Shown piece by piece: positions 34,683 through 41,960 of a DNA stretch of 48,591 nucleotides. Position numbers and translations under genes: made by a program. The stretch spans positions 1 to 48,591 of the forward strand of contig CAUJDS010000061.1 of the NCBI GenBank assembly GCA_963169695.1, in the 5' to 3' direction. The DNA is from Bdellovibrionota bacterium. Lineage in GTDB: Bacteria; Bdellovibrionota; UBA1018; CAUJDS01. The notes under the pieces are model-generated. The model had not been told where the DNA came from. It made no database searches and worked only from the letters and a program-made list of their open reading frames with translations. The first letter of the stretch is position 1, and the number at the start of each line of letters is the position of its first letter.

Positions 34683-36239
34683 CTATCTCCCAAGTGACTT
34701 AAAGATGAATGGATAGGTGACGCCCACGGTGACACCACCCTTCGGATGTGGAAACTGCCATCGCTTGAGCCGCCGTATAAGGCAGTCGTCAAGCCTTGGA
34801 TCTGGAACAGTTGAACTTTTTACGGCTGCAGTTCGAACGAGACCAGCTGGTCCGATTGCAAAGTCGACAATGAGTTTTCCTTCGATATCAGGTGTGTGAA
34901 TCATGGCGGATTCATAGCAATAGCGAACTTCGTTGAGGTGAGCATGAATGACTTTGCCGACCTCGTCTTTGGTAAGTCCTTCTTCAACTTGGGATCCACC
35001 AGAATCCAGGGAAACAAAAGACGAACCTTGTCCCGCTACGGCGGCAACAGATCCTTTGCCATAGCCAACTTGCTTACCTTTGGCATCTCCGCCCAAAGAA
35101 GAAACTTTAATCTGCCTAGAAGAAGTAAGGTGTTTGTCGGAAACATTGCCTACAGTAGCCGACGAATTAAAAACTTTCTTCGAGGCGCTTCGATCACCGC
35201 CGACAAGGTCTGATTGGGCGAGTAGGGTGGTGAGTCCACCCTTGAGAAGGCCTTGAACAGCATTCTGTACGGCTTGTGCACGGAAAGCTTGGACCACTTC
35301 TGTTTGCGCGGCCTTGGTTGGGGCAGGTGTTCCTCCGCCTTCTTTAATGCCATCTGACTTGGGCGCTTCCTGCGGTGTCATGACGATTTTGGCATATTGT
35401 TCTGGTATGAGTTCATTGGGATCTTCTTGCGGCTTTGGCATGAAGTAAGAAATAGCTAAGAACAGCGTAAGGAGCGCGCCAGCGATCTGAACGGACCGCT
35501 TTAAGTTCGAGAGGTCCTCGGAAGATTCTCTGGAAACGCGTACATCTATGCTGGGAATTTTTTTGGCATTAGCAGTGCCAAAGTGCCAACTATGTGCATT
35601 CCATTGCAAAGTGGATTCAAGAATTTCGCTTTTTCCAAGGGTTGATTCGTTAGAACCCATTGCCGCGCCTTCCGAATCTTTGTTTCCAAGCGTAAGGCCG
35701 TCGCTGAGTGGGTGAATTCTGTACTGAGATCCCTGAACCGTTATTTCAAAAAGGGTCTTGCCTGAGGCTGTACCAACATACTTCTTTTGTATTCGAGTTA
35801 CGTCATGAACCCAGTTGCCAATGCATTGATAGATTCGTAGTGGGTCAGATTCAGAAGATTCCTGGAGAAATGGGGCTTCAATCGTTTGAGCGGTTGTGAC
35901 TCGAATGCTATAGTCTCGACAGAAATCTTTAGGGCCAGGCAGAGTCTGGTCTGAGGCATTGCGGAGGTCCTTTTCTGTCATTTCAAGGAAAGCATCTTCG
36001 ACACGCTCGTTGACGGGGCTTCCTACCCAGCGAATTCGAATGCCAGCATCTGTCGTCCGTTCAAGAAACCAAAGGACGGGATAGCCAAGTGCTAGTGGGC
36101 GATCTGGATTCCATATGATTGTTTGTGTCGTAGAATCTTTTGAGGAAATTTTTCGAGTTAGGGCGACGACGAACCGCTTCGGCTGACGCTGCTTTTTCTT
36201 TGTGCCTGTGCTGCGTGCCGCTGTGGTGTTTAGACTCAT
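34683..36239 (-). CDS. AgmX/PglI-type TonB-like transducer, GltG-like
   Basis: 518 residues: a cytoplasmic N-terminal domain (about 20-255), one membrane helix (about 257-277, 'AGALLTLFLAISYF'), a glycine/serine-rich periplasmic linker, and a C-terminal domain (about 425-515) 'EEGLTKDEVGKVIHAHLN...VRYCYESA' and 'VVDFAIGPAGLV'-type strands. The last domain matches the AgmX/PglI C-terminal family related to TonB, with conserved cysteines. In Myxococcus, GltG and GltJ have this architecture and carry the AglRQS motor's force through the periplasm to the outer-membrane complex. It overlaps the small upstream gene by ATGA. Confidence 0.78.
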   Translation of the reverse strand: MSLNTTAARSTGTKKKQRQPKRFVVALTRKISSKDSTTQTIIWNPDRPLALGYPVLWFLERTTDAGIRIRWVGSPVNERVEDAFLEMTEKDLRNASDQTLPGPKDFCRDYSIRVTTAQTIEAPFLQESSESDPLRIYQCIGNWVHDVTRIQKKYVGTASGKTLFEITVQGSQYRIHPLSDGLTLGNKDSEGAAMGSNESTLGKSEILESTLQWNAHSWHFGTANAKKIPSIDVRVSRESSEDLSNLKRSVQIAGALLTLFLAISYFMPKPQEDPNELIPEQYAKIVMTPQEAPKSDGIKEGGGTPAPTKAAQTEVVQAFRAQAVQNAVQGLLKGGLTTLLAQSDLVGGDRSASKKVFNSSATVGNVSDKHLTSSRQIKVSSLGGDAKGKQVGYGKGSVAAVAGQGSSFVSLDSGGSQVEEGLTKDEVGKVIHAHLNEVRYCYESAMIHTPDIEGKLIVDFAIGPAGLVRTAAVKSSTVPDPRLDDCLIRRLKRWQFPHPKGGVTVGVTYPFIFKSLGR

Positions 36240-36517
36240 TTTCGAAATCTCACTTCATCAAGAGAATCAGCTAGCTCCGGTCGGAAGTGAGTGCGCTTTT
36301 CATAGAGCCTGGACTGGTCACGCTTGCGGTCTTTGTTGGCGAGGGTGTTGAGGTAGTCAAAGGGGCGTTTGTTCATGCCCTCAACGACTTGGTCTTCAAA
36401 ATCTAAGGAGGTTTCGCGAGAAGAGCCCGCGACGTGACTCTGCGCAAAAGCACTGGTGCTCACCGCTATCCCAAATGCCAAGAATGCGAGCGCTCGAATC
36501 GCGCTGCTATGTTTCAC
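36236..36517 (-). CDS. Small exported protein, GltF/CglF-like
   Basis: 93 residues from a GTG at 36517-36515 with GGGGG five bases upstream; no in-frame ATG exists before the signal peptide (AIRALAFLAFGIAVSTSAFA). The mature part is short and charged, with 'LDFEDQVVEGMNKRPFDYLNTLANKDRKR' and 'LYEKRTHFRPE'. I associate this pattern with the small periplasmic gliding proteins encoded before gltG in myxobacteria; this is recall, not a computed match. It is the first gene of the second gliding operon. Confidence 0.65.
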   Translation of the reverse strand: MKHSSAIRALAFLAFGIAVSTSAFAQSHVAGSSRETSLDFEDQVVEGMNKRPFDYLNTLANKDRKRDQSRLYEKRTHFRPELADSLDEVRFRK

Positions 36518-36642: not shown

Positions 36643-36715
36643 ACAGCCCCAGCAAGGCGGGTTTGATGCTTCTAAGTTAGCAATGGGTGACAGGAAGGGG
36701 AGCAGCGAGGGGGGG
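36643..36715 (+). repeat. Left inverted-repeat arm of HNH cassette
   Basis: Contains CCCCAGCAAGGCGGGTTTGA at 36647-36666, the exact reverse complement of 38176-38195. Further matches inward include AAGTT, TGACAGGA and GCGAGG. Confidence 0.7.
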
Positions 36716-37116
36716 CTGCAGCTTCGATTTAGTACATTTATAATATGTATATTAACGAATCCGCACTAGGATCTGAAGGCTACCGCTTGGTCGTACTGTA
36801 CGATGAGGGTTTGGTGCCCGAGAAGCCTGCAGCAAGCTACCTTTTCTGATTGTGACTTATTTGTGAGTGCAAAATAAAATGCAGATGATTTTTTTCTTGG
36901 CTCATTGAAGAGCTGTTTTCTTTTTCATTTCTTGGCAATCGTCCAACTTTTCTCATTACGGAGCTAAGCCTTCACATTTTCATTTAGAGCGGAGAATGTT
37001 CACTTCACGGGAAGGATCTTAATTTTGAGAATGAAACTCATTAGCGGCTAAAGAAGCGAGAAAAATCGCGCATTAAAACCCGTGGTAAGTTCCTCCTCGT
37101 TGAAAGGAACTCTCCA

Positions 37117-38076
37117 ATGTCACACGTATTTTGCACGCTCCATGATCAAGCTTTGAAGCTCTCTAGGCAATACCTTGCTTGCGAGAAAGCACTTTTAGAA
37201 ATTCTTGTGCAGATTGAGGCTAAGAAAATTTATCTTCAACAAGGCTATGCAAGCCTAACCGAGTATTCTCAGAAGGCACTTGGGCTATCTCGAGATGTCA
37301 GCTGGAACCTTGTTACCATTGTTCATAAAACCAAAGCCGTACCAGAGCTTAAGCACGCGGTGCAAATGGGGGTACTTCCTCTGAGTAAAGCTAGGCAGAT
37401 CGCCCCCCATTTGACGAAAGAAAATTCTCAGAAGTTCATCGCCTTGGCTCAGGCCATGCCAAGAGAGAAGCTTCAAGAAGCGCTCGCCAAAGAATGCCCC
37501 AAGATTCCAAGCGTGGAAGAGCGTGCCCGGGTAATCAACGCGACACAGACTGAGCTTTCTTTGTGTTTGCCAAAAGACGTCATGGAGAAACTTAGGCGAG
37601 CCCAAGATCGAGTCTCTGAGTCGCAAAAGAAGTGGGTTGGACTAGCAGAGACCTTAGAGCAGGTCATCGAATTCTACCTTCAGCACAAAGATCCAAAAGA
37701 AAAAGCCAAGCGCCATGAAGTTCGAAAAAACAAAGCAGCTCTGAAGGCAATTCAACCCCGTCGTACAGTACGAGAATCTGACGCGGCTGCTAGAAATTCT
37801 GAATTTAATCTTATGCCTATCAATAAGCCTATAGCCAAGATTCAAGCAAAAGGCCGAGTCCCCATTCCTGCGGGTATCAAACACGAGGTGACTATCAAGA
37901 ATGCACATCAGTGCACCTATCGAGACTCTAGGACCCAGCTTCGATGTATGAAAGAAAGGTTCTTACACATCCATCACAAGCTTCCGGTAGCAATGGGTGG
38001 AACTAATGCGTTAGAGAATCTTACTTTGCTTTGCAGCGCCCATCATCGCTTAGAGCATTATCGAGGAGGCGGGTAG
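37117..38076 (+). CDS. HNH endonuclease domain protein
   Basis: 319 residues from the ATG at 37117 with AAAGGAA upstream. The helical N-terminal region ('CEKALLEILVQIEAKKIYLQQGYASLTEYSQKALGLS') is of the DUF222-like kind seen in multicopy HNH proteins. The C-terminal nuclease (about 260-319) has 'HQCTY...LRC', 'HIHHKLPVAMGG', 'NLTLLCSAHHRLEH', that is the His-His, Asn and His residues of the HNH beta-beta-alpha-metal fold plus zinc-binding cysteines. The gene is intact. It runs against the flanking gliding genes and lies between long inverted repeats, so it is probably cargo or agent of a mobile element. Its cleavage site is unknown. Confidence 0.85.
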   Translation: MSHVFCTLHDQALKLSRQYLACEKALLEILVQIEAKKIYLQQGYASLTEYSQKALGLSRDVSWNLVTIVHKTKAVPELKHAVQMGVLPLSKARQIAPHLTKENSQKFIALAQAMPREKLQEALAKECPKIPSVEERARVINATQTELSLCLPKDVMEKLRRAQDRVSESQKKWVGLAETLEQVIEFYLQHKDPKEKAKRHEVRKNKAALKAIQPRRTVRESDAAARNSEFNLMPINKPIAKIQAKGRVPIPAGIKHEVTIKNAHQCTYRDSRTQLRCMKERFLHIHHKLPVAMGGTNALENLTLLCSAHHRLEHYRGGG

Positions 38077-38291
38077 GATTTTGATGATCGCTGCGCATTT
38101 CTAATCGTAGGGTTACTTTGGCGCTGCCCACCTCGCGGCATCCTCCTCCTGTCATCCCGGCCAAACTTCCTAGCTTCAAACCCGCCTTGCTGGGGATGTG
38201 ATAACTCTGTCTGGTCGCCTATGGGGCAAGCATTTATGAAATAGATTTGTTTACACAGAGAATTAGCCAGTAAGAACTCTATAGTCTCGCT
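38077..38291. other. Intergenic region between HNH gene and TPR gene
   Basis: Holds the right inverted-repeat arm (38124-38199). The remaining 90 bases up to the stop of the 1222-aa TPR gene are AT-rich, with no clear intrinsic terminator. Confidence 0.5.
38124..38199 (-). repeat. Right inverted-repeat arm of HNH cassette
   Basis: Reverse-complement partner of the left arm; the perfect block is 38176-38195. The outermost bases ACA/TGT also match across one mismatch. Confidence 0.7.
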
Positions 38292-41200
38292 CTATTTTTT
38301 TGTTTCGGTACTTTTTGGCGTTGGGTCTTGGAGTTGTTGAATGCGACGCAATTCAGTGCGGGCCCAATAGGATTCGTCATTGTTATCTGACTTTTGAGCC
38401 ATCAAGAGAAGGTCCATGCGATTGCGATCGGATACCTTTGCCTGGGTCCAAGCGATTCCGTAACTGAGTAGAAATGCTTCTCGTTCATTTGAGATAGCGG
38501 TCTTCATGAGATGGCTAGAACTTTCATCTTCGAGCTTCTTTATCCAATCCAACGTAGCTTCCTTTGAAAATGTTTTGATGTAGTGGCTCAGTGCTATGAC
38601 CGTCGCCTGATTTCGATAGTCATCACCCAGTTGACTTCGCACATCCAATAGTTCCTTAAGTGCTTCTGCCCTTGCGCCGGCATAAGCCAAAGTTACGGCT
38701 CGCATTAGAGCTAGCCCGGATGATGTCGTCAAGTTTCGATCCTTGAGTTCTTGGAGGAAATACGAAACCTGTTGCCACTTTTGTTCCTTGAGGGCGAGGC
38801 TCCATCGGGATTTGAGATAGAGTTCAGTTACTTCTCCTTGAAGCTTCATTTCAAGATTGATTGTTTCCCATAGTCCTTTGGGGTCCAGCCTTCTCAGGGT
38901 TTTGTGCGAAAACCGGATTGGCTCAATACTCTTAACTCCTCCAGTGATCTGACTCGCTTGAGACGGATTGTCTGCAAAAAATAGATTGGCGATCTTCACA
39001 AAATCGGAATCTTCAATGGAATTCGTAGAAGCGATTTCGAATGACTTGCTTCGAAGTTCCTGTCCCTTTTCCTCAAAAGGCAGCACCAACTTTTGAATGG
39101 TCTCTTGATACGACGCTGCTTCATTTTCAGGGAGGCCCTTGGGTGGGGCTAATTGAGAAAGTGATTTAGAAAAATCGATGTACAATTGAGCAATCTCAAG
39201 CATAACTCTCGCTCGAATTCTTGCCCAAGGCAGTTTCATGGAACTCTTTGCGGACTCTTCAATTTCTTTGATCTGGGCAACTCGATGAGTGATTGATTTC
39301 TCACTTGATTTTAGCGGAGTGAGTCGATCAATGTCCTGCCTGTTCAGTTCAAAGCTTTTTGGAATTGAGATGGACACTTTAGGTAGTAGTGCCAGTTGCA
39401 AGTCAGGTTCTAAATCATTCCATCTTCCAGCTACTTGCTTTGATAGTAAGAGCCTATCTGGATACCGCAGAGCTTCCTGTTGTTCTAGGGCAGCGGCTGC
39501 CCAAATTGGGCGATTATCTCTAGGGGCATTAAGAGCGAGCTTCATCAATTCTTCGGGTTTTCGGTCGCGTGTTTGCAGGGAATTGAGTGCTAAATAGCGA
39601 TTACAAAAAACTTCTAGCTCTTTATTGCAAATTTCAGGGCTCTCCAAAGACGTGATCAATTGCTTCCTGTCTCCGGAGATCCATCCGAGGTGCACAATTT
39701 TCTTTCTTAAATCAGTGAGCTCCGATTCAGACATCTTTACTTTGTCTTTAGGTAGGCGGGTGTAGGCGAGGTAATCTGATGCGGCATCAGAAAATCGATA
39801 TAGCGCCTCGCCAATTTTGCCAGAAGATAGGTAACTTGCCGGTAGGTGCTCTGATTTTGGAAAAGTCTTGATCAGTTTCTGGTAAAAATTTCCTGAGCTA
39901 ACTAGGTCCTTCGTACTCTCCGATGCTCTCGCTGCAAGATAAAGGGCGTCTTGAATTCTGGGGCTGCCAGGATAGCGAGTTTCGAAGGATCCAAATGCCG
40001 TAACGACCTCGAGGTATTTTTTATCCCTAAAGTCCGTCTCCATCAATTTGTAGCTTGAGTCAGCAGCAACCGAAAAAATCTTTGTTTTGAACTGAGGGTC
40101 GTTCCAATTCTGAACCTTGAGGTACTCATGCGCAAGGTCACGCGCATCTTTCCAGCGTGCATTCTTGACATAGGTGTCTAGCACTAAACTGCCAGCTGGC
40201 ACGGCAAAGAGTGAAGTGGGATATGCTCTTGAGATATGAAGAAGTCGTTGAAGCGAAGCTTCGAGGTAGTTCTTATAGTAGAGTGAGCGCGCGCTCTCGA
40301 AAAGAAAGCTATCAAATTTCTTAAAATCCTTCGAAAAGTGAGATTCGTGCCAATCAATCCAGGCAAGCCATTCCGTAAGTAGTGGATCCATGGAGTTTTT
40401 TGAATTTTCGTCTAAGTTTTTAACTTCGAGTTTCTTGGGTGAGAAGTCTTTCGTCTTGAAGACTTCATAGCGGCTTGCAATTGCCTTTAGGCTCGAATCC
40501 TCCAATTGGACGCCATCCTTCACGGCCCAGGCGTTGGTCCACTTGTTGACAATCCAGCGATAGTGAAAGGTGGATTCTTCAAAGCGCCCAATCGCAAATA
40601 AAGTTTCAGCTAAGTTGTAATGTACTGCGGGAACTCGAGGGTCCGTTTCCTTTACAATTTTGGTAAAGGTGTCGTAGAGATTGGCTAATGGCTCGCTCCA
40701 AACTTTTAACGCATTGCCTTTGTCTTTGTTTTTGAGAATAGAAGTTCTGAGCTCATTGGCCTTATCGAGTATGACATTTTGGGAGCGTTGATAGGCATCA
40801 AATTTTGAGAGGTCAGTTTTATTGGTTTCGTAAAGCGCAATGATGCTTTGAAGTGGTTGAGGCATTTCGGGATAGAGCTTCTGATTCCAGAGGTGTTCAA
40901 AGGCAATGAGCGCAACCTCCATAGATTCGGGTCTTCGAGGTTCTCCCTTAGCGACGACATTCTGCCATTCAAGAAGTGCCTCGGTCTTTCCATTGGTTCT
41001 TAGGACTTTGGCGAATCGCTCGAGCATTTTCCCGAAAGTTATCCCTGATTCCAGGCTCTTAAAGTAGGGAAGAGCTTTGGAGACAGCATAAGAGCCAGGT
41101 TCTCTTGCAAAGCCTTCATAGTAGAATACGGCCGTATCCAATAAGCTAGTATCTCGAATGGCGAGGTCGGATTGGGAGTACCCGGTTTCGACTTCAAATT

Positions 41201-41960
41201 TGGAATTGTAATAGATAATGTGTGATTCGAGATAGGAAAGGGCTTTTGAGATCTCGCCCAAGTTGTAATAGGACCATGCCAGCTTATAGAGTGCATAAGG
41301 ATACTGCGGATGCTCAGGCTTTTTTTCCACCTGCAGAAGGTATCCAATGGCTTCTTGATGATGGTTGTCTTCAATCGCAAATTGAGCCAAAGCCATGTAG
41401 GCAAGAGGCACTTCAGGGGCCTCAGGAAACTTCTGTGTGAAGGCCAGGTAGTCTGATTTCGCATCCTTCTTTTGCTCTAGTTCTTCGCGAGCCTTGGCTT
41501 GCATAAAGTAGGCGCGCCCACTATCCGTATGGTCTGGATAACCTCGGATGAGTTGTTGTGTCGTTGAGATGATGGATTTTAGAGTGGTATTATAATCTTT
41601 GAGATCGAGGGGGCCGTTGTTGTAGTGAGCCTTAGCGTGCGCAATGCGGAATTGAATCGCGCCAGCTTGCTGATGGACATCGGCAAGTCGAAGCAGAAGT
41701 TCTGGAATGCGCCGTGTGCCTTGGTATTTCTTGATGAGTTCATGGATCTTTTTTTCGGCTATTTTTTGGGTGTCGAGGGCTACCTTGTCTACTTGGCGAT
41801 CATAGTTTTCGCGACTATTGGGATTTTTCACTTTTGAAGAACCGGGTCCTGCGACAATATCGGTAGCTTTCTTTGGTGGTTTTTTTGGTGCGGCGACGGA
41901 TAGGGCACCCGTGAGGCTCAAACCGATCAATAGTCCAAAAGCAAGAAACCTTTTTTGCAT
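38292..41960 (-). CDS. Large periplasmic TPR protein, GltD-like position
   Basis: 1222 residues with a signal peptide (MQKRFLAFGLLIGLSLTGALSVAA) and a Lys/Pro-rich start to the mature protein. Helical TPR-type pairs run through the length, for example 'LADVHQQAGAIQFRIAHA', 'AYFMQAKAREELEQKKDAKSDYLAFTQKFP' and 'YALYKLAWSYYNLGEISKALSYLE'. It directly follows the AglRQS-type motor genes (15 bases after the last). Large TPR proteins (GltD/AgmU, GltE, GltI/AgmK) are parts of the Myxococcus gliding complex; the signal peptide favours a periplasmic GltD-like role. It is the last gene of the first gliding operon, and the HNH cassette follows. Confidence 0.75.
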   Translation of the reverse strand: MQKRFLAFGLLIGLSLTGALSVAAPKKPPKKATDIVAGPGSSKVKNPNSRENYDRQVDKVALDTQKIAEKKIHELIKKYQGTRRIPELLLRLADVHQQAGAIQFRIAHAKAHYNNGPLDLKDYNTTLKSIISTTQQLIRGYPDHTDSGRAYFMQAKAREELEQKKDAKSDYLAFTQKFPEAPEVPLAYMALAQFAIEDNHHQEAIGYLLQVEKKPEHPQYPYALYKLAWSYYNLGEISKALSYLESHIIYYNSKFEVETGYSQSDLAIRDTSLLDTAVFYYEGFAREPGSYAVSKALPYFKSLESGITFGKMLERFAKVLRTNGKTEALLEWQNVVAKGEPRRPESMEVALIAFEHLWNQKLYPEMPQPLQSIIALYETNKTDLSKFDAYQRSQNVILDKANELRTSILKNKDKGNALKVWSEPLANLYDTFTKIVKETDPRVPAVHYNLAETLFAIGRFEESTFHYRWIVNKWTNAWAVKDGVQLEDSSLKAIASRYEVFKTKDFSPKKLEVKNLDENSKNSMDPLLTEWLAWIDWHESHFSKDFKKFDSFLFESARSLYYKNYLEASLQRLLHISRAYPTSLFAVPAGSLVLDTYVKNARWKDARDLAHEYLKVQNWNDPQFKTKIFSVAADSSYKLMETDFRDKKYLEVVTAFGSFETRYPGSPRIQDALYLAARASESTKDLVSSGNFYQKLIKTFPKSEHLPASYLSSGKIGEALYRFSDAASDYLAYTRLPKDKVKMSESELTDLRKKIVHLGWISGDRKQLITSLESPEICNKELEVFCNRYLALNSLQTRDRKPEELMKLALNAPRDNRPIWAAAALEQQEALRYPDRLLLSKQVAGRWNDLEPDLQLALLPKVSISIPKSFELNRQDIDRLTPLKSSEKSITHRVAQIKEIEESAKSSMKLPWARIRARVMLEIAQLYIDFSKSLSQLAPPKGLPENEAASYQETIQKLVLPFEEKGQELRSKSFEIASTNSIEDSDFVKIANLFFADNPSQASQITGGVKSIEPIRFSHKTLRRLDPKGLWETINLEMKLQGEVTELYLKSRWSLALKEQKWQQVSYFLQELKDRNLTTSSGLALMRAVTLAYAGARAEALKELLDVRSQLGDDYRNQATVIALSHYIKTFSKEATLDWIKKLEDESSSHLMKTAISNEREAFLLSYGIAWTQAKVSDRNRMDLLLMAQKSDNNDESYWARTELRRIQQLQDPTPKSTETKK

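What the first reader, a model, noticed from the sequence alone, without database searches (positions are those of the whole stretch)
36643..38199. HNH gene enclosed by approximately 70-bp inverted repeats inside the gliding locus
Arms at 36643-36715 and 38124-38199 are imperfect reverse complements with a perfect 20-base core. The enclosed intact HNH gene runs opposite to its neighbours. This looks like a single-gene mobile unit without a classical transposase, splitting the gliding genes into two operons. HNH proteins with this type of N-terminus recur in Bdellovibrio-like genomes; whether they usually have such ends I do not know.
Basis: partly seen in the sequence, partly recalled or inferred. 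Interest (0 to 1): 0.7.

Follow-up and report, generated by a model that had tools for sequence, protein, structure and literature searches.

The report
HNH-nuclease jumping element with palindrome address
A small DNA-cutting-enzyme gene that has copied itself about 25 times around one Bdellovibrio-like genome sits between matching inverted ends and carries its own probable address label (a short palindrome), and it spreads with no recognisable transposase.

Summary
Arms at 36644-36714 and 38127-38198 are inverted repeats with a perfect 20-base core, enclosing an intact 319-aa HNH gene. The arm core occurs 40 times in this 2.79-Mb genome (reversed control 0). At least 39 of 41 arms lie on HNH elements or their remnants. 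About 25 copies exist, with two HNH lineages (24-28% identical) sharing one arm family. In related genomes the gliding genes on either side are adjacent (gap 52-219 bp, here 1774 bp), so this is an insertion.

The arms are subterminal in copies that keep outer ends. Those copies end in ~20-bp outer inverted repeats, and 3 of 3 with both ends have ~8-bp target duplications. No transposase carries such ends. Most relatives' HNH genes lack arms; two other genomes have them, with different sequence.

New: the protein pairs a ParB/Noc-like DNA-binding fold with HNH. Its gene carries a palindrome in the interdomain linker (39 of 45 gene palindromes, p=8e-17) that often recurs upstream. In a related genome a 148-bp element sits exactly in that palindrome's centre.

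Best reading: a selfish HNH element spreading by self-addressed cutting and repair. Its insertion chemistry is unproven, and trans-mobilisation by an unseen transposase is the main rival.

The parts
36644..36714 (+). left arm: ~72-bp inverted repeat (5' side of the HNH gene), one of about 41 genomic arms
38127..38198 (-). right arm: inverted copy of the ~72-bp repeat
37117..38076 (+). HNH gene, 319 aa; one of ten intact type-1 copies (83-88% identical) in the genome; dN/dS about 0.13
37234..37506 (+). part coding the helical ParB/Noc-like DNA-binding region (about residues 40-130)
   Evidence: AlphaFold model plus Foldseek to Noc/Spo0J/ParB DNA-binding domains (approximate limits)
37942..38061 (+). 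HNH nuclease domain (residues 276-315)
   Evidence: Pfam PF01844
36791..36803 (.). upstream palindrome TCGTACTGTACGA
   Evidence: present in the type-1 elements examined, near-absent elsewhere
37761..37773 (.). in-gene palindrome TCGTACAGTACGA, in the linker between the two domains
36848..37116 (+). conserved non-coding leader of the element (promoter/5' region), shared by the type-1 copies
   Evidence: alignment of ten copies
36236..36517 (-). gliding-locus gene (93 aa) on one side of the insertion; adjacent to the TPR gene in relatives
38292..41960 (-). gliding-locus TPR gene (1222 aa) on the other side of the insertion

Best explanation
This is one of about 25 copies of a single-gene selfish element. 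Its protein has a ParB/Noc-like DNA-binding region joined by a flexible linker to an HNH nuclease. Shown by sequence: the element is multi-copy and inserted into an ancestral gliding operon. Better-preserved copies are bounded by ~20-bp outer terminal inverted repeats with ~8-bp target duplications, inside which lie the ~72-bp subterminal arms. Two HNH lineages use the same arms, and the coding regions are under purifying selection with conversion-like tracts. The type-1 gene carries a palindrome both upstream and in its linker. Inferred: the DNA-binding region recognises that palindrome and the HNH domain cuts there or at the ends. New copies then arise by repair-driven copying or insertion that uses the element's repeated ends, and copies exchange sequence by conversion.
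For: Arm count and linkage. Empty operon form in relatives. Outer flanks A and B found essentially only on these elements. Outer repeats: all six genome hits with <=2 mismatches are element ends, none next to a transposase. Target duplications 3/3 at >=7/8, null 0.0054 each. Deletion derivatives keeping both arms or both ends. dN/dS 0.13. Conversion-like tracts. Arm identity independent of HNH lineage. Same architecture with unrelated arms in two other genomes: G058 consistently inward-facing; G059 43 of 52 arm units inward by count from the table. ParB/Noc fold for both lineages. Palindromes: 39/45 in the linker, p=8e-17; recurring upstream in 23/62 genes against 3.1 expected, downstream 1/63 (94); 25 copies in 40 kb of element against 1 in 144 kb outside. 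G009: a 148-bp TIR element sits in the centre of the palindrome with CCGG duplication at four places.
Against: TIR plus ~8-bp duplication is what a DDE-type transposase produces; HNH enzymes are not known to do this (general knowledge). The window copy's own outer ends are not recognisable (p 0.29 and 0.33). Arms are shared by unrelated HNH lineages and differ between genomes, so they are not obviously the substrate of a given HNH protein. The G009 insertion could be the work of an unrelated palindrome-seeking element. The ParB/Noc match is by fold only, with Foldseek E about 0.5. Many of the 23 upstream matches are paralogues; about nine palindromes are independent.
Confidence: 0.52

Rival explanations
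1. A non-autonomous transposon: the outer inverted repeats are recognised in trans by an unidentified (perhaps lost or unassembled) DDE transposase, and the HNH gene is a passenger or accessory gene.
For: Outer repeats and ~8-bp target duplications; miniature and deleted copies that keep the ends; two HNH lineages carried between the same ends.
Against: All genome hits to the outer repeat with <=2 mismatches belong to HNH elements and at least 39 of 41 arms are on HNH-derived sequence; no other gene was found between such ends. HNH genes stay under purifying selection in all ten copies. The HNH gene is multi-copy even in genomes without arms.
Confidence: 0.28
2. The HNH genes serve the host (for example defence or chromosome maintenance); the repeats are host-specific intergenic repeats that only help copies recombine and convert.
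For: Strong purifying selection, conversion-like tracts, genome-specific arms shared by both HNH lineages.
Against: Insertion into an operon with an empty ancestral form, deletion derivatives, target duplications, copy number varying from 0 to 33 between related genomes. PADLOC matches were weak and partial only.
Confidence: 0.12
3. REP/RAYT-like or other stand-alone repeats that happen to sit beside HNH genes.
For: Tandem arm units in G058 and G059 with some outward-facing units.
Against: Arms in this genome are not palindromic and share no conserved fold; no tyrosine transposase family match was seen for the gene; at least 39 of 41 arms are attached to HNH sequence.
Confidence: 0.05
4. An RNA-guided nuclease locus (IscB/HEARO or TIGR-Tas-like), with the arms as guide RNA or arrays.
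For: The HNH domain gives weak matches to IscB.
Against: Matches are confined to the HNH domain; no Rfam hit; no conserved arm fold; HNH is C-terminal with a ParB-like, not Nop or RuvC, partner; published TIGR arrays are 8-12-nt repeats with 9-nt spacers (PMC12045711), unlike these.
Confidence: 0.03

Closest known systems
REP13E12 / DUF222-HNH repeat family of mycobacteria
   Same: Multi-copy repeated elements with an HNH protein and no transposase; REP13E12 loci are gene-conversion hotspots (PMC13061034), as copies here show conversion-like tracts.
   Different: The window protein gives no DUF222 match, only 5 of 15 type-2 relatives do, weakly. Inverted arms, outer TIRs and paired palindromes are not mentioned in the passages read; mycobacterial sequences were not examined here.
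Free-standing HNH homing endonucleases
   Same: Single-gene selfish unit with an HNH nuclease; likely cut-and-repair spread (inferred).
   Different: Inserted at many unrelated sites rather than one allelic site, with inverted arms, TIRs and target duplications.
Insertion sequences / MITEs
   Same: Terminal inverted repeats, ~8-bp target duplications, deletion derivatives.
   Different: No transposase; the only gene is HNH with a ParB-like DNA-binding region.
REPtron (RAYT gene bracketed by inverted REPs)
   Same: A single gene flanked by inward-facing, genome-specific repeats (REP/RAYT description from general knowledge).
   Different: No HUH/Y1 transposase; arms are not short hairpin palindromes and are rarely dispersed alone.
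ParB/parS and Noc/NBS
   Same: Helical DNA-binding fold and palindromic sites close to the gene; some relatives' palindromes look like parS (e.g. CTGTTCACGTGAACAG in L198; parS consensus from memory).
   Different: Fused to an HNH nuclease, no CTPase domain seen in the model, not part of a segregation locus.

Membership tests
Insertion sequence (DDE transposon) | terminal inverted repeats | tested here: met
   Outer repeats in a subset of copies; not recognisable in the window copy
Insertion sequence (DDE transposon) | target-site duplication | tested here: met
   3 of 3 copies with both outer ends, >=7/8; not found for the window copy
Insertion sequence (DDE transposon) | encodes a transposase | tested here: not met
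   Only HNH between the ends
Free-standing homing endonuclease | nuclease domain of a homing family | tested here: met
   Pfam HNH
Free-standing homing endonuclease | insertion at the cognate site, empty alleles contain the intact site | tested here: inconclusive
   Sites are unrelated outside the element; cleavage site unknown
REP13E12 / DUF222-HNH | DUF222 domain | tested here: not met
   No match in the window protein; weak in 5 of 15 type-2 relatives
REP13E12 / DUF222-HNH | multi-copy with gene conversion | tested here: met
IscB / OMEGA (HEARO RNA) | RuvC-split nuclease with associated structured RNA | tested here: not met
   HNH-only matches, no Rfam hit
TIGR-Tas (TasH) | Nop domain plus dual-repeat guide array | tested here: not met
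   No Nop match among the listed fold hits; HNH is C-terminal here, N-terminal in TasH
RAYT / REPtron | Y1 tyrosine (HUH) transposase | tested here: not met
   No such domain
ParB / Noc | ParB-type HTH DNA-binding fold | tested here: inconclusive
   Fold match, Foldseek prob up to 0.96 (type 1) and 0.84 (type 2) but E about 0.5-1.7; no sequence-profile match
ParB / Noc | palindromic cognate site | tested here: inconclusive
   Palindromes conserved in place; binding not testable here

The most novel reading that the evidence does not exclude
An HNH nuclease fused to a ParB/Noc-like DNA-binding region is itself the mobility enzyme of a new class of TIR-bounded elements. It addresses itself through a palindrome carried in its own linker and leader, and in each host genome it adopts that genome's own family of inverted arms.
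Probability: 0.25. Interest if true: 0.85.

Novelty: new variant of a known kind. Interest (0 to 1): 0.68.

Why it matters
Multi-copy HNH genes are widespread in Bdellovibrionota and related groups and are usually annotated simply as HNH endonucleases. This case gives them ends, target duplications, an empty site and a probable binding site, so their spread becomes directly testable. If the HNH protein itself moves the element, it would be a transposition route without a known transposase. The paired palindrome gives a readable protein-DNA specificity code that changes between copies and lineages.

Tried and rejected
Close-relative scans of genome and viral contigs with the single protein found nothing. 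Rfam: nothing. Conserved secondary structure of the arms: none beyond a tiny helix. Left/right arm co-evolution within elements: not significant (perm p 0.20). Recognising the outer flanks A/B in the window copy: not significant. Long inverted arms around HNH genes in the first set of order-level relatives: absent. An autonomous transposase with the same outer repeats: not found. PADLOC defence families: weak partial matches only. Literature searches turned up no description of HNH genes with inverted arms in this phylum, but the library holds open papers only.

Full report
OBSERVATION. The two arms are real: 36644-36714 and 38127-38198 are inverted copies of a ~72-bp repeat, 78% complementary over the best ungapped 59 nt and identical over CCCCAGCAAGGCGGGTTTGA. 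They enclose an intact 319-aa HNH gene on the + strand while all gliding-locus neighbours are on the - strand.

COPY NUMBER AND LINKAGE. In the 2.79-Mb genome (82 contigs) the 17-base arm core occurs 40 times with up to 2 mismatches, against 0 for the reversed pattern. BLAST with the left arm finds nearly the same set plus C69. The HNH protein has nine further intact paralogues at 83-88% identity, several remnants, and a second lineage at 24-28% identity. Pairing arms and genes gives about a dozen arm pairs enclosing HNH genes or remnants. The other arms belong to elements cut by contig ends (C51, C80), to deleted copies (C8:29186-29811, C57, C8:11555, C69, C75:8375) or to copies that lost one arm. 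Of 41 arms only two lack recognisable HNH sequence inside: a ~190-bp derivative (C60:150484) and a decayed solo arm (C60:111766).

EMPTY SITE. In order-level relatives L109, L114, L118 and L119 the 1222-aa TPR protein, the 93-aa protein and GltG are adjacent without HNH. Across eight relatives the gap after the TPR gene is 52-219 bp; in the window it is 1774 bp. The element therefore entered an ancestral gene cluster. No genome of the same family was available, so a base-exact empty site could not be read.

REAL ENDS. Outside the arms, seven left flanks share ~80 bp (B, starting GGTCTCCGTAATGAACGTTGAA) and seven right flanks share ~130 bp (A, starting GGGACTCCGTAGTAATCGTTGAA), plus one partial A. 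A and B occur essentially only on these elements (a truncated A end lies alone at C41:40804). Their outer starts are inverted copies of each other, so the arms are subterminal in these copies. Three copies keep both outer ends: C60:150484, C8:29106-29837 and C60:158615-160167. All three have ~8-bp direct repeats at the ends (CAATTTTA/CAATTCTA, CAGTTTTA/TAGTTTTA, GATTGTCC/GATTGCCC; >=7/8 in each, null 0.0054 each). A search for the outer repeat gave only element ends at up to 2 mismatches and no transposase. The window copy's own outer flanks are not recognisable (p 0.29 and 0.33), so its membership rests on the arms, interior and gene.

TWO HNH LINEAGES, ONE ARM FAMILY. Arm similarity does not depend on which HNH lineage is inside (difference 0.001, p 0.34). 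Gene copies are under purifying selection (dN/dS about 0.13 with dS of 0.3 or more), and there are significant conversion-like tracts here and in G058. At the contig ends of C51 and C80 the bases inside the arms look identical while the arms differ, which also suggests conversion; this is a single case.

OTHER GENOMES. HNH genes of this family are found in 32 of 58 genomes tested (own genome included), up to 33 copies, nearly always without these arms. There the conserved unit is a leader of about 150-300 bp plus the gene. Two further genomes do have bracketing repeats, of unrelated sequence: Bdellovibrionales ND5_Bin_38_2 (G058; arm units of ~200 bp, consistently inward-facing) and Bdellovibrionaceae UBA6776 (G059; ~66-bp units, 43 inward against 9 outward by count from the table). 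In both, HNH genes of both lineages are next to that genome's arms. Arms are thus genome-specific and lineage-blind.

PROTEIN AND PALINDROME. AlphaFold models of both lineages give a helical N-terminal region, a disordered linker and a C-terminal HNH. Foldseek aligns the N-terminal region with Noc/Spo0J/ParB DNA-binding domains (type 1: prob up to 0.96, TM by target up to 0.65; type 2: Noc prob 0.84) but with E about 0.5-1.7; this is a strong lead, not proof. Of 45 perfect palindromes of 14 bp or more in 116 HNH genes, 39 lie in the linker window (p=8e-17). The in-gene palindrome recurs upstream in 23 of 62 genes (3.1 expected) but downstream in only 1 of 63. Many of these are paralogues; about nine palindromes are independent. 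In G000 the palindrome CGTACNGTACG occurs 25 times in 40 kb of element and once in 144 kb outside, and only in type-1 elements. In the window it is at 36791-36803 and 37761-37773. In G009 the copy L125 has a different palindrome, but the same one in both places. So the palindrome goes with the protein while the arms go with the genome.

AN INSERTION INSIDE THE PALINDROME. In genome G009 a 148-bp element with ~18-bp inverted ends lies exactly in the centre of ACTCGCG-CCGG-CGCGAGT, duplicating CCGG, at four places: L120 twice, L121 and L124. In the 40 kb of G009 sequence in hand it is found nowhere else. This marks the palindrome as a cutting or insertion hotspot, although an unrelated palindrome-seeking transposon would look the same.

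MECHANISM. Shown: multi-copy, inserted, TIR plus target duplication in better-preserved copies, shared arms, selection on the gene, palindromes fixed in place. Inferred: palindrome recognition by the N-terminal region, HNH cutting, and copying by repair. Not shown: who makes the insertion. The chief rival is mobilisation by an unseen transposase acting on the outer ends.

COMPARISON. The nearest known kind is the REP13E12/DUF222-HNH repeats of mycobacteria, which are multi-copy and gene-conversion hotspots (PMC13061034; also PMC10589994). The window protein has no DUF222 match, so membership is not claimed. IscB/HEARO, RAYT and TIGR-Tas were tested and not met.

Noticed in passing
L120, L121, L124 (genome G009): A 148-bp element with ~18-bp perfect inverted ends is inserted exactly in the centre of the HNH palindrome with a CCGG duplication, twice inside HNH genes and twice upstream; L128 may hold a decayed one.
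   Followed up: partly
G000 C51:9566-9764 and C80:31422-31620: Two contigs end inside the element; the bases inside the arm look identical while arm and outer flank differ, suggesting conversion of the interior or recent copies collapsed in assembly.
   Followed up: partly
G000 C13:13310, C31:72535, C60:111766, C63:20184 left flanks; C31:13415; L192:3336-3414: Other palindromic interspersed repeats (GGTGCCAGGCACC type, TTTTTGGCCCGAGGCGCGTCA type) often directly abut the arms or HNH elements.
   Followed up: no
L184:18-1160: In Bdellovibrionaceae UBA6776 an HNH element with long inverted arms sits close to a gene that looks like the window's 649-aa gliding-locus protein (judged by eye); perhaps coincidence, perhaps a favoured region.
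   Followed up: no
   Followed up: no
G002 (e.g. L143) and L198 in-gene palindromes: Some linker palindromes (ATGTCACGTGACAT, CTGTTCACGTGAACAG) look like ParB parS sites.
   Followed up: no
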